Part shown: piece by piece, positions 1 through 38,915 of the stretch
Layout of the letters: each line of letters opens with the position of its first letter
Position numbering within the stretch: position 1 is the stretch's first letter
Origin: Gammaproteobacteria bacterium
GTDB lineage: Bacteria > Pseudomonadota > Gammaproteobacteria > SZUA-152
DNA: 59,295 bases
Assembly (NCBI GenBank): GCA_032250735.1
Contig: JAVVEP010000019.1
Coordinates: 1-59,295, forward strand
Direction of reading: 5' to 3'
Program-made: the position numbers and the translations under genes
The notes under the pieces: generated by a model
What the model saw: only the letters and a program-made list of their open reading frames with translations
What the model was told of the DNA's origin: nothing
Databases searched by the model: none

Positions 1-54
1 CCCGCGACCCCCGGCGTGACAGGCCGGTATTCTAACCAACTGAACTACCACTCC
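1..54 (-). tRNA. tRNA-Asp (GTC), 3' part cut by window edge
   Basis: The minus strand reads GGAGTGGTAGTTCAG from position 54. A D-arm follows, then an anticodon stem-loop with GTC at 18-20, and then the GGGTCGCGGG variable/T-arm start. The T-arm and acceptor 3' strand lie beyond position 1. It follows tRNA-Val and hupB on the same strand and is probably co-transcribed with them. Confidence 0.93.
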
Positions 55-128
55 CCAACATAAACCTGATTCCCTAATTAACTTCAAGCTATTAACGTTT
101 AATTTATAGCCAAAGCCAATTAAAGCAA

Positions 129-204
129 TGGTGGGTGCTGAGGGACTTGAACCCCCGACATTCGCCGTGTAAAGGCGACGCTCTCCCAACTGAGCTAAGC
201 ACCC
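129..204 (-). tRNA. tRNA-Val (TAC)
   Basis: A complete 76-nt cloverleaf on the minus strand, from GGGTGCTTAGCTCAG at 204 to an encoded CCA at 129. The anticodon loop reads TTTACAC, giving TAC (Val). The acceptor strands GGGTGCT and AGCACCC pair. Its 5' end is only 13 nt after the hupB stop codon, so the tRNA probably shares the hupB transcript and is cut out by RNase P. Confidence 0.97.
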
Positions 205-6998: not shown

Positions 6999-7083
6999 TG
7001 GTGCCGCCCCCCGGACTCGAACCGGGACGGGTTGCCCCACCAGAACCTAAATCTGGCGTGTATACCAATTTCACCAGGGCGGC
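6999..7083 (-). tRNA. tRNA-Leu (TAG)
   Basis: An 85-nt class II tRNA on the minus strand, from GCCGCCCTGGTGAAATTGG at 7083 to an encoded ACCA at 6999. The anticodon loop CAGATTTAGGTTCTG gives TAG, and a long variable arm is present. It lies 75 nt upstream of the tig start. A 21-bp piece of its variable region recurs at 7136-7156. Confidence 0.96.
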
Positions 7084-7135
7084 GTAATAAAAATTATAAG
7101 CGCGACTTCATATCAGTCACACCTATGGGCTCTCA

Positions 7136-7156
7136 CGGGTTGCCCCATCAGAACCG
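7136..7156. repeat. Partial copy of the tRNA-Leu variable-arm region
   Basis: The 21 bp ACGGGTTGCCCCATCAGAACC match positions 7027-7047 inside tRNA-Leu with one difference. The rest of the tRNA is absent, so this is a remnant of a duplication or recombination event in the spacer before the gene. Confidence 0.6.
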
Positions 7157-7286
7157 GGTTGGGCCGAACCATGCCACCGGCCTTGAATCTGTGGTGACCC
7201 TGACCGACCCGCACTGCATTCTACCATCGCCTTGTGATGACAGAAATCGAAACCAGTGATTTTCTGTGGATCAAGCTCGCATCCAC

Positions 7287-7332
7287 AAAAAAGCCCGGCA
7301 TTTACCCTCTGGGGCATAAAGGCCGGGCTTTT
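7287..7332 (-). terminator. Intrinsic terminator between tRNA-Lys and tRNA-Leu
   Basis: AAAAAAGCCCGGC (7287-7299) pairs with GCCGGGCTTTT (7322-7332) across a loop of 22 nt. The hairpin is symmetrical. On the minus strand it would end transcription coming from tRNA-Lys before tRNA-Leu and tig. Confidence 0.75.
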
Positions 7333-7336
7333 GGAC

Positions 7337-7412
<76 letters not shown>

Positions 7413-7500
7413 AAACTGGGCACCCTGTAACTTTCCCGTACCAGGGTCAAAAACTGATGTCATTCATACCGCCTGGCGCGAATGACTTACTCATAATATA

Positions 7501-7577
7501 TGGGGTGGACGATGGGACTCGAACCCACGACGACTGGAATCACAATCCAGGGCTCTACCAACTGAGCTACGCCCACC
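7501..7577 (-). tRNA. tRNA-His (GTG)
   Basis: A 77-nt tRNA on the minus strand, starting at 7577 with the extra G at -1 typical of tRNA-His (GGTGGGCGTAGCTCAG) and ending in an encoded CCA at 7501. The anticodon loop TTGTGAT gives GTG. Confidence 0.97.
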
Positions 7578-7600
7578 ATCGGTCATCAAACCGGGCCGCG

Positions 7601-7629
7601 ATTATACATTACGCGGCAATAAAATGAAC
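7601..7629 (-). promoter_or_regulatory. Putative promoter upstream of tRNA-His
   Basis: On the minus strand a perfect TATAAT (7606-7601) is preceded at 17 nt by the weak -35 TTCATT (7629-7624). It is followed by a GC-rich discriminator CGCGGCCC, the feature linked to stringent control of stable-RNA promoters. Confidence 0.5.
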
Positions 7630-7659
7630 ACCGAGTGACGGCGAACATCTGAAAAACAT

Positions 7660-7736
7660 GGCGCGCCCGGCAGGATTCGAACCTGCTACCCTCGGCTTAG
7701 AAGGCCGATGCTCTATCCGAATGAGCTACGGGCGCA
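7660..7736 (-). tRNA. tRNA-Arg (TCT)
   Basis: A 77-nt cloverleaf on the minus strand, from GCGCCCGTAGCTCATTCGG at 7736 to an encoded CCA at 7660. The anticodon loop CTTCTAA gives TCT (Arg, AGA/AGG codons). Confidence 0.97.
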
Positions 7737-7776
7737 TCGTTTGGTCAACAGGTTGAACCGAGTGCCTCATGCCTAC

Positions 7777-7809
7777 AACTTGCCTAAAACTTGCCTAAAA
7801 CTTGCCTAC
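7777..7809. repeat. 11-bp tandem repeat, three copies
   Basis: AACTTGCCTAA is repeated three times head to tail (7777-7787, 7788-7798, 7799-7809; last base differs) between tRNA-Arg and tRNA-Pro. It lies just downstream of the tRNA-Pro 3' end on the minus strand. No function can be assigned. Confidence 0.8.
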
Positions 7810-7817
7810 AAAAAATG

Positions 7818-7894
7818 TGGTCGGGGTAGAGAGATTCGAACTCCCGACATCCTGCTCCCAAAGCAGGCGCGCTACCAGACTGCGCTATACCCCG
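7818..7894 (-). tRNA. tRNA-Pro (TGG)
   Basis: A 77-nt cloverleaf on the minus strand, from CGGGGTATAGCGCAGTCTGG at 7894 to an encoded CCA at 7818. The anticodon loop TTTGGGA gives TGG. It is the first gene of the Pro-Arg-His-Lys-Leu tRNA run on this strand. Confidence 0.97.
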
Positions 7895-8079: not shown

Positions 8080-8934
8080 ATGAGCGCACATATTATTGAT
8101 GGCAAGGCCATTGCCGCCGAACTTCGACAAGACATCAAGAGCCGCGTCGAGCAGCGGCTTGCCAAGGGGTTGCGCGCGCCGGGGCTGGCGGTGGTCCTGG
8201 TGGGGTCGGACCCCGCCTCACAGGTCTACGTCGACAGCAAGCGCCGCGCCTGTGAAGAGGTGGGCTTTGTCTCCGTGGCACACGATCTGCCCGCGGACAC
8301 CCAGGAGGCCGCCCTGCTGGCGCTGATCGACGCACTCAATGACAATCCGGACATCGACGGTATCCTGGTGCAACTGCCCCTGCCCGCCCACATCGGTACG
8401 GAAAACGTCATCGAACGCATCCACCCCGACAAGGACGTGGACGGTTTTCACCCCTACAACGTGGGACGCCTGGCGCTACGCCAACCCGTGCTGCGTCCCT
8501 GCACCCCGCGCGGCGTCATTACCCTGCTGGAAAAGATCGGTCAGAACCTTCGCGGCATGGATGCCGTGATAGTCGGCGCCTCGAATATCGTCGGTCGGCC
8601 CATGGGCCTGGAACTGTTGCTGGCCGGCTGCACCGTGACCACCTGCCATCGTTTTACCCAGGATCTGGAGGCGCACGTCCGTCGCGCTGACTTGCTGATT
8701 GTGGCGGTCGGCAAGATCGGTATCGTCGATGCCGAATGGATCAAACCCGGTGCAGTGGTTATCGATGTGGCGATCAATCGCAATGCGGACGGCAAGCTGG
8801 TGGGCGACCTGGACTTTGAGGCCGCCCGCCAGCGTGCCGGATGGATCACCCCGGTGCCCGGTGGCGTGGGACCGATGACCGTCGCCACCCTGTTGCAGAA
8901 CACGGCGGATGCCGCTGACCAGCTACACCGATAA
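8080..8934 (+). CDS. folD: Bifunctional methylenetetrahydrofolate dehydrogenase / cyclohydrolase
   Basis: FolD interconverts 5,10-methylene-THF and 10-formyl-THF through methenyl-THF, using NADP. The 284 residues match the family. The catalytic Lys lies in [15 protein letters not shown], the folate-site signature is [15 protein letters not shown] follows, and the Rossmann-fold signature [11 protein letters not shown] binds the nucleotide. Near the C-terminus, [16 protein letters not shown] is conserved. ATG 8080 has no clear Shine-Dalgarno sequence. It is transcribed away from the tRNA cluster and converges with cysS. Confidence 0.97.
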
Positions 8935-37675: not shown

Positions 37676-37945
37676 TTAGCCGATAATCATGGGGATGTCG
37701 GTGATCAGGCGTTTGGTATAGGTCATCAGCAACTGCAACAGCCACGAACCGGCCACCAGCAGGGTCACGAAGGTGATGCCCAGCTTCGGGATAAAACTGA
37801 GAGTCTGTTCGTTCAACTGGGTGGCGGCCTGGAACATACTCACCAGCAGACCCACCGCCAGTGCGGGCAACAGGATCACCGCCGTCATCAACAGCACCAG
37901 TTCGAGGGCCTGCTTTGCAACCGTCATTACCATTTCTGGAGTCAT
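37676..37945 (-). CDS. fliQ: Flagellar biosynthetic protein FliQ
   Basis: An 89-residue protein with two membrane helices (ALELVLLMTAVILLPALAVG and FVTLLVAGSWLLQLLMTY) joined by the conserved loop QAATQLNEQTLSFIPK. It is part of the FliPQR gate. Unusually, 187 bp separate it from fliP; the spacer holds a large palindrome. Confidence 0.96.
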   Translation of the reverse strand: MTPEMVMTVAKQALELVLLMTAVILLPALAVGLLVSMFQAATQLNEQTLSFIPKLGITFVTLLVAGSWLLQLLMTYTKRLITDIPMIIG

Positions 37946-38008
37946 TTTCGTTATCCGTTAAAAGCCGTGTTCAAAACGCGCGGCGGCATTACACATACTA
38001 ACAAGGCG

Positions 38009-38115
38009 CATGGAAAGGATGCCCTTCAATCAAGACCGTCAGCAGCAGGATGCTGCTGTCGAGCGTACACGGATGTATTTTCAGCGCGTCTTGATTGAAG
38101 GGCATCCTTTTCATG
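38009..38115. repeat. 107-bp palindromic element between fliP and fliQ
   Basis: The left arm (38014-38036) and right arm (38088-38110) are perfect 23-bp inverted repeats with the core GGATGCCCTTCAATCAAG. With one G-T pair the stem extends to 28 bp (38009-38036 with 38088-38115), bounded by CATG on both sides. The 51-bp centre contains a second hairpin, CAGCAGCA-GGA-TGCTGCTG (38040-38058). No T-run follows on either strand, so it does not look like a terminator. It resembles a REPIN- or MITE-like insertion, or an RNA-processing element of the operon transcript. Confidence 0.85.
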
Positions 38116-38132
38116 TGACTTAATAATAAAAA

Positions 38133-38915
38133 CTACACATAAAAACTGGAGGCCAGCGTTCCCATCACCATTGCCCAGCCATCAACCAACACAAACAGCA
38201 TGATCTTGAACGGCAGTGAAATGATCATCGGGGACAGCATCATCATACCCATCGCCATCAGCACACTGGCGACCACCAGGTCGATGATAAGAAAGGGAAT
38301 AAAAATCAGAAAGCCGATCTGGTAGGCCGTTTTCAGTTCGCTGGTCACGAACGCCGGCATCAGCAGTGTGAAGGGAATATCGTCGGCGGTATTGATCTCA
38401 CCGACGTCGGCAATCTCGGCAAACAGGCTCAAATCCTTTTCGCGTGTTTGCGCCAGCATAAATTCCCTGAAGGGCCCGGCCGCTTTATCAAACGCCTCCC
38501 CGGCCTGCAGCTTTTCTTCCAGATAGGGATTGATGGCATCCTCGTAGACCTTGGTAAATACCGGCGACATCACAAAGATGGTGAGAAACAGCGCCAGCCC
38601 GATCAAGATCTGGCCGGACGGTGCCTGCGGCATACCGACGGCCTGCCGCACAATCGACAACACGATAATGATGCGTGTAAATGAGGTCAGCATAATCAGC
38701 GCCGCCGGTAGCAGGCTGAAGGCCGTCATCAGGGCCAGCACCTGCAGGCCCATGGTATAGGTCTGGCCACCATCCGCTTCGGTGGTTACCGACAGCACCG
38801 GCATACCCGGATCAGCGGCAAGCGAGATTGACGGGAAAAGTGCCAATAACAGAACCGGGGTTAACCAGGCCATGGTCGCGGCGATGCATCTAAATCCTGT
38901 TAGCTTGCCTGCCAT
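38133..38915 (-). CDS. fliP: Flagellar biosynthetic protein FliP
   Basis: A 260-residue export gate protein with a cleavable signal peptide (ending near SISLAADPG) and four further hydrophobic helices. Family motifs are [39 protein letters not shown] and the C-terminal [17 protein letters not shown]. It overlaps the fliO stop by ATGA. Confidence 0.97.

What the first reader, a model, noticed from the sequence alone, without database searches (positions are those of the whole stretch)
38009..38115. Large perfect palindrome inserted between fliP and fliQ
A 23-bp perfect inverted repeat (28 bp with one G-T pair), with an inner hairpin, separates two genes that normally abut. In the operon RNA it would form a very stable stem without a terminator T-run. 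It may be a REPIN/MITE-like mobile element, a processing site, or a brake that lowers fliQ and downstream expression relative to fliP.
Basis: seen in the sequence. Interest (0 to 1): 0.6.

Follow-up and report, generated by a model that had tools for sequence, protein, structure and literature searches.

The report
Widespread folding repeat between flagellar genes
The palindrome between two flagellar genes is one copy of a repeated, probably mobile DNA element whose centre is shared by many gamma-proteobacteria; that centre folds into two small hairpins resembling the RNA sites grasped by the regulator CsrA, while its long arms can differ from copy to copy and still pair with each other.

Summary
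The palindrome is real: 28-bp arms with one G-T pair, 23 bp perfect. It is the middle of a ~133-bp repeat (37996-38128) with 10 other near-full copies in its genome. None of 20 FliP loci from 18 other genomes holds its core, so it was probably gained in this lineage. The core (38037-38086) is shared with the Yersinia repeat YPAL/RU-2. A covariance model finds it in 38 of 232 sampled Gammaproteobacteria; single genomes give up to 117 hits. The core is a three-way junction: arms P1 plus two hairpins with NGGA loops, one of which (UACANGGAUGUA) nearly equals the CsrA SELEX consensus. In some genomes cores are ~91% alike while arms are ~48% alike yet ~99% self-paired. Interior mispairs of the arms are G-U rather than A-C on the GGA strand (116:23), also where neighbouring genes run antisense (34:6), so the fold of that single strand seems to be what is kept. 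Best reading: a YPAL-type repeat whose GGA strand is a CsrA/RsmA-docking RNA; binding is inferred, not shown, and single-stranded DNA is a serious rival. The fli mRNA carries the opposite strand, so here it is probably a stable hairpin spacer. Mobiliser unknown; REPIN membership not supported.

The parts
37996..38128 (+). whole repeat unit (own-genome subfamily), from TACTAACAAG to TTAATAATA, bounded by TA at both ends; strand given is the one with the GGA loops
   Evidence: alignable limits of 10 other near-full copies and their ends read by eye
38009..38036 (+). left arm of the palindrome (P1)
   Evidence: paired in the fold
38088..38115 (+). right arm of the palindrome (P1)
   Evidence: paired in the fold
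38040..38058 (+). hairpin P2, stem CAGCAGCA/TGCTGCTG around GGA (this copy lacks the N of the usual NGGA loop)
   Evidence: alignment to model R1; for the loop in other copies
38066..38077 (+). hairpin P3, TACA-CGGA-TGTA; with G38065 it matches 11 of 12 positions of the CsrA SELEX consensus
   Evidence: alignment; consensus from PMC7652899 passages
38029..38095 (+). match to covariance model R1 of the conserved core, 76.4 bits, E 9e-19
38133..38915 (-). fliP (upstream gene of the operon; its stop lies 4 nt from the element)
   Evidence: ORF; homologues
37676..37945 (-). fliQ (downstream gene; 50 nt after the element)
   Evidence: ORF; named from sequence and position

Best explanation
It is one copy of a dispersed, non-coding, probably mobile palindromic repeat whose core is that of the Yersinia YPAL/RU-2 repeat and occurs across Gammaproteobacteria. 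Shown: many copies; core absent from this site in relatives; a conserved three-way-junction core; arms that vary but stay paired; excess of G-U over A-C mispairs on the GGA strand. Inferred: the GGA strand acts as RNA, and its two (A)NGGA hairpins dock CsrA/RsmA, so copies act as dispersed CsrA ligands (a sink, or a cis site where the GGA strand lies within an mRNA). At fliP-fliQ the mRNA carries the complementary strand, so the expected local effect is that of a very stable stem just after the fliP stop: a spacer that separates fliP and fliQ translation and may offer a double-strand RNA cleavage site. Confidence by step: repeat with a YPAL-type core about 0.9; fold of the GGA strand is what is kept about 0.8; CsrA/RsmA ligand about 0.4; spacer or cleavage role here about 0.4. 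The figure below is for the reading as a whole.
For: 10 other near-full copies at 86-96% identity; core absent in 20 of 20 other FliP loci. Core within the printed RU-2/YPAL sequence (PMC2759123 passages); Rfam Ysr224 at 22-32 bits in 3 of 8 loci. Structure: 88.7% of cells paired against 69.8% shuffled, 215 double changes against 58. Arms: in G057 0.48/0.46 alike between copies, core 0.91, pairing 0.99 within against 0.57 between copies. G-U 116 against A-C 23, 80 elements against 11, held in antisense settings 34:6, P2 10:1. P2 loop NGGA in 167 of 176 scorable elements although the search pattern did not include P2. SELEX consensus RUACARGGAUGU and ANGGAN loops (PMC7652899 passages). CsrA found in 37 of 38 carriers.
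Against: No binding or expression data. GGA strand is antisense to codirectional genes as often as sense (45 against 34), and antisense to the fli operon, so read-through mRNA does not explain the strand bias. One carrier with 9 copies (G237) shows no CsrA match, and CsrA is in 168 of 194 non-carriers too. Rfam's Ysr224 is drawn on the other strand, and the window's own locus L031 gave no Rfam hit at E <= 1. The window copy has a shortened P2 loop (GGA) and C where the consensus has A/G in P3. G-T against A-C would also be favoured in folded single-stranded DNA. Divergent-gap elements do not show the bias (2:3).
Confidence: 0.5

Rival explanations
1. The GGA strand matters as folded single-stranded DNA: a transposase or recombinase recognises it during mobilisation, and the NGGA hairpins are its recognition sites, not CsrA sites.
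For: Strand bias independent of gene direction; orientation to genes near random; YPAL makes target duplications (PMC2229807 passages). Y1_Tnp, a single-strand transposase family, is in 33 of 38 carriers and 129 of 194 non-carriers.
Against: No mobiliser found: 6 own Y1_Tnp loci carry no copy; carriers G125 (21 copies) and G272 (at least 22) have no Y1_Tnp match. At Marinobacter sites elements seem old yet still paired, which mobilisation alone would not keep.
Confidence: 0.3
2. Passive DNA palindrome: an ordinary MITE whose arms are kept alike by template switching at palindromes; no role for the strand or the loops.
For: TA-bounded imperfect terminal repeats and many copies; arms change on both sides across species.
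Against: Strand-specific G-U excess; NGGA kept in P2 loops while the stem varies; linked C-G or G-A positions, 63 and 53 of 116, none mixed.
Confidence: 0.12
3. A regulator specific to the flagellar operon: an RNA processing site or brake that sets FliQ relative to FliP.
For: Very stable stem on the mRNA strand (241 nt: -87.3 kcal/mol, z -5.3) just after the fliP stop; Yersinia and Neisseria palindromic repeats are described as mRNA stability determinants (PMC2267715 passages).
Against: Core absent in 20 of 20 other FliP loci; 10 sister copies lie elsewhere in the genome. A side effect remains possible.
Confidence: 0.15

Closest known systems
YPAL / RU-2 repeat of Yersinia and Erwinia (Delihas 2007, PMC2759123 and PMC2229807, passages seen; De Gregorio 2006 not held)
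   Same: Same core sequence and hairpins; internal inverted repeats; dispersed, intergenic, with empty sites reported
   Different: Window unit is ~133 bp, not 167-168; arms unrelated; bounded by TA, which YPAL is said to lack; found far outside Yersinia/Erwinia
Rfam RF02770 Ysr224 (Yersinia sRNA; multi-copy in Y. ruckeri, PMC12112432, one passage)
   Same: Core aligns over the whole model in two relatives' copies
   Different: 30-32 bits against a gathering score of 70; opposite strand; no hit for the window's own locus
REP / REPIN with RAYT transposases (PMC3733652, passages seen)
   Same: Short intergenic palindromes in many copies, seldom in divergent gaps
   Different: No GTAG tag; other architecture; no copy at own Y1_Tnp loci
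CsrB / RsmZ type RNAs (PMC7652899, passages seen)
   Same: Hairpins with (A)NGGA loops; longer variants seem to add more of them (by eye)
   Different: Repeated dispersed element; no promoter, terminator or binding known

Membership tests
YPAL/RU-2 | core sequence of RU-2 | tested here: met
   Core shared; Y. similis locus L123 differs from printed RU-2 by one base, by eye; R1 fits window
YPAL/RU-2 | unit of 167-168 bp with the Yersinia arms | tested here: not met
   ~133 bp with other arms
YPAL/RU-2 | termini without TA | tested here: not met
   Most own copies bounded by TA, by eye
YPAL/RU-2 | target duplication of 3-26 bp | tested here: inconclusive
   Relatives too diverged at the site
Rfam Ysr224 | gathering score 70 bits | tested here: not met
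   Best 32 bits in a relative; none for L031 at E <= 1; none in the window at gathering
REP/REPIN (GTAG type) | GTAG tag beside the palindrome | tested here: not met
   Absent from 37996-38128 on both strands, by eye
REP/REPIN (GTAG type) | association with a RAYT gene | tested here: not met
   No copy at 6 own Y1_Tnp loci; 5 of 38 carriers without Y1_Tnp match
REP (CGTC type) | CGTC tag, 8-9 bp stem with A-T in the first two pairs, CCA-like tail | tested here: inconclusive
   CGTC does stand before P2 (38037-38040), but stem start and tail do not fit, by eye (features)
MITE | many copies, terminal inverted repeats, no ORF of its own | tested here: met
   terminal repeats imperfect; no gene of its own in 133 bp
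MITE | partner transposase with the same ends | not tested
   Only Y1_Tnp loci and 12 own-genome stretches with partial or variant copies were fetched; their genes were not identified
Intrinsic terminator | U-run after the stem in the mRNA | tested here: not met
   mRNA strand continues CATGCGCCTTG
CsrA/RsmA-binding RNA | GGA in hairpin loops, ANGGA context | tested here: met
   167 of 176 scorable P2 loops; P3 by search pattern. Window P2 loop lacks the N
CsrA/RsmA-binding RNA | transcription of that strand and binding | not testable with these tools
   No RNA or protein data

The most novel reading that the evidence does not exclude
A class-wide family of mobile palindromes that spreads CsrA/RsmA docking hairpins through gammaproteobacterial genomes: the GGA strand is an RNA kept in shape by selection, the arms are free to change so long as they pair, and with up to about a hundred copies per genome the elements form a dispersed CsrA sink, of which YPAL/Ysr224 is only the Yersinia branch.
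Probability: 0.3. Interest if true: 0.85.

Novelty: new variant of a known kind. Interest (0 to 1): 0.6.

Why it matters
It ties a little-explained Yersinia repeat and a multi-copy 'sRNA' to one structured family in dozens of gammaproteobacterial genera, gives a sequence-based sign of which strand matters, and names a protein partner that can be tested directly. If CsrA binds it, selfish DNA would be feeding a global regulator; if not, the strand bias still points to a single-strand-specific process that remains unnamed.

Tried and rejected
REPIN/RAYT reading: not supported on tag, neighbourhood and co-occurrence. Integron attC (the left end CTAACAAGGCGC recalls one): rejected by eye, the right end does not fit. 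Insertion into ready-made hairpins as the source of variable arms: at Marinobacter sites a and c the species without the element show no hairpin there (4 of 15 at each site, with one further remnant at site a, by eye), but it is not excluded, since the own genome has short hairpins made of the outer ends without a core. Plasmids: 17 plasmid and 5 E. coli records carry a core; I viewed 5 of them and did not search for empty partners; a Marinobacter core had no plasmid match.

Rows dropped and limits: one search left out 58 elements 'inside' an ORF (probably spurious ORFs), 16 at edges and 12 far from genes, keeping 129 of 215; genes there are simple longest ORFs. Arm mispairs use 170 of 215 elements, positions 7 and outward. 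A1 holds 51 of the 82 database elements with arm score 12 or more (82 of 116) plus 3 own copies, which favours paired arms but not P2. Core identity is inflated by the fixed search pattern. Hits at E <= 0.01 are rough; one search scored at most 22 candidates per genome; 34 of 397 genomes of the phylum matched, all in the window's class, but how many other classes were drawn is not told, so nothing is claimed about absence elsewhere. One record named Rhodobacteraceae (L127) carries a core; a mislabelled contig cannot be excluded. The output was cut in the middle of site b. Literature searches listed no paper that joins YPAL to other gammaproteobacteria or to CsrA; only held open-licence papers were searched and listings were short.

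Full report
OBSERVATION. The palindrome is where reported. Arms 38009-38036 and 38088-38115 pair over 28 bp with one G-T pair, the inner 23 bp perfectly. The fold is -75.3 kcal/mol, z -9.5. It lies in a 187-nt gap between fliP (38133-38915, -) and fliQ (37676-37945, -); the repeat unit ends 4 nt from the fliP stop. The operon runs on the - strand, so its mRNA holds the complement of the GGA-bearing strand.

REPEAT AND SITE. In its own genome (3.43 Mb, 61 contigs) there are 10 further near-full copies at 86-96% identity and several partial ones. Read by eye, copies run TACTAACAAG...CTCAATARTA, with imperfect terminal repeats and TA at most ends. Several contigs end within or beside a longer variant (L012, L013, L017, L018). 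By BLAST 2 of 56 other genomes, one of the genus and one of the family, have similar DNA. FliP was found in 19 of 26 genomes, the own one included. Of 21 FliP loci given to the core model only the window's own has a match. In 13 loci whose fliQ start I could read by eye the gap is about 5 to 120 nt; two more (L190, L193) have long gaps of other sequence. So the element was probably gained in this lineage; flanks are too diverged to show a target duplication.

WHAT FAMILY. Copies in the two relatives have other arms but the same core. Among 8 loci tried, Rfam gave three sub-threshold Ysr224 matches (22-32 bits) and one chance-level miRNA; the window's locus gave none at E <= 1. The two best cover the whole Ysr224 model on the strand opposite to GGA. 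Ysr224 is reported as multi-copy in Y. ruckeri (PMC12112432, one passage). Delihas 2007 (PMC2759123, passages) prints the 168-nt RU-2/YPAL repeat, which contains this core; a Yersinia similis locus differs from it by one base by eye (L123). PMC2229807 (passages) reports for YPAL target duplications of 3-26 bp, targets at or beside dyad symmetry, and empty and filled sites.

STRUCTURE. An alignment of 54 cores (A1) fits a three-way junction: P1 arms, P2 hairpin with loop NGGA, P3 hairpin TACA-NGGA-TGTA. Paired cells are 88.7% against 69.8% in shuffles, double changes 215 against 58, slid versions 26-41%. P1 was enriched for pairing by my choice of rows; P2 was not, and 6 of its 8 pairs change on both sides. 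P3 was fixed by the pattern; a relaxed scan finds a few compensated stems, TCCA/TGGA and CCCA/TGGG (overlapping loci counted). Two positions beside P3 are linked: C with G in 63 and G with A in 53 of 116 elements, mixed in none. Model R1 scores the window copy at E 9e-19; a weak second hit at 8539 (E 0.08) looks like chance.

DISTRIBUTION. At E <= 0.01 (rough) R1 gives 16 hits in the own genome, 59 and 106 in the two relatives, 117 in Marinobacter denitrificans, 84 in Y. similis, 82 in a Luteimonas, 13 in a Pectobacterium (12 genomes chosen as carriers). In an even draw of the class it hits 38 of 232 genomes, 33 of 196 genera, at E <= 1e-6: patchy, as for mobile DNA.

ARMS. In G057 (8 copies) arms are 0.48/0.46 alike between copies, cores 0.91, pairing 0.99 within a copy against 0.57 between copies; G062 (20) 0.55/0.52, 0.92, 0.93, 0.62; G012 (6) 0.37/0.35, 0.90, 0.91, 0.49. 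In G063 (15) and the own genome (10) arms are alike (0.95-0.98 and 0.90-0.92), as after a recent burst; G011 (5) is in between. Across 15 Marinobacter relatives, the same operon gaps often hold elements whose arms have changed on both sides; some gaps are empty and some hold another core type with similar outer flanks (by eye, output partly cut).

WHICH STRAND. In 170 of 215 elements, interior non-Watson-Crick arm pairs read on the GGA strand are G-U 116, A-C 23, other 58 (elements are not independent, so the p of 4e-16 is too small). By element 80 favour G-U and 11 A-C; with one element per named locus 34 against 7. The bias holds where neighbouring genes run antisense to the GGA strand (34:6) and where they run sense (8:0); convergent 21:2; divergent 2:3 does not show it. 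P2 stems give 10:1. Mutation bias linked to transcription or replication should follow gene direction, so the fold of this strand itself, as RNA or single-stranded DNA, seems to be what is kept. Of 129 classifiable elements 45 are antisense and 34 sense to codirectional genes, 41 convergent, 9 divergent (no null computed).

MECHANISM. P2 loops are NGGA in 167 of 176 scorable elements. P3 nearly equals the CsrA SELEX consensus RUACARGGAUGU, and ANGGAN loops are the RsmE target (PMC7652899, passages). Longer variants in L013, L015, L017, L084, L130 and L209 seem to add further GGA hairpins (by eye, not folded). This makes CsrA/RsmA the leading candidate. Against it: near-random orientation; a carrier (G237) without a CsrA match; CsrA present in 168 of 194 non-carriers; the window copy's shortened P2 loop and its C in P3. 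The main rival is recognition as single-stranded DNA; Y1_Tnp is in 33 of 38 carriers and 129 of 194 others, but not detected in two with many copies, and none of the 6 own Y1_Tnp loci holds a copy. In the fli mRNA the complement folds to a stable stem without GGA loops; I expect a spacer or cleavage site, untested.

VERDICT. Observation confirmed; mobile reading supported, REPIN not, brake untested. A new variant of a known kind (YPAL/RU-2 core) whose breadth, variable arms, strand bias and CsrA-like loops I did not find described in the paper searches named under Tried and rejected.

Noticed in passing
L276 2018-2070, L278 about 1976-2030, L280 about 1995-2045 (own genome C13, C35, C56): Short near-perfect hairpins made of the element's outer ends with no core between them: precursors, targets or deletion products.
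   Followed up: partly
L284 about 1870-2010 (own genome C23:22007-22074): A core in the same genome with quite different arms and a compensated P3 stem (TCCA/TGGA): a second subfamily.
   Followed up: partly
L012, L013, L015, L017, L018: Longer variants with about 45 extra bases in P2 that hold more GGA hairpins; most lie at contig ends, so no complete copy is seen.
   Followed up: no
L216 1-7601 and L260-L274: Each of four intergenic gaps of one Marinobacter catabolic operon holds one or two elements in many species, with other core types (e.g. L272-L274) at the same sites.
   Followed up: partly
L193 and L190, fliP-fliQ gap: Two other relatives have long fliP-fliQ gaps with unrelated inserted-looking sequence; the gap may tolerate insertions.
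   Followed up: no
window 1-204 and 7002-7894: Seven tRNA matches on the - strand.
   Followed up: no
L195-L214 (genome of L122, recorded as Klebsiella pneumoniae MAG): About 99 hits in a 3.6-Mb assembly labelled K. pneumoniae, which is small for that species and may be mislabelled.
   Followed up: no
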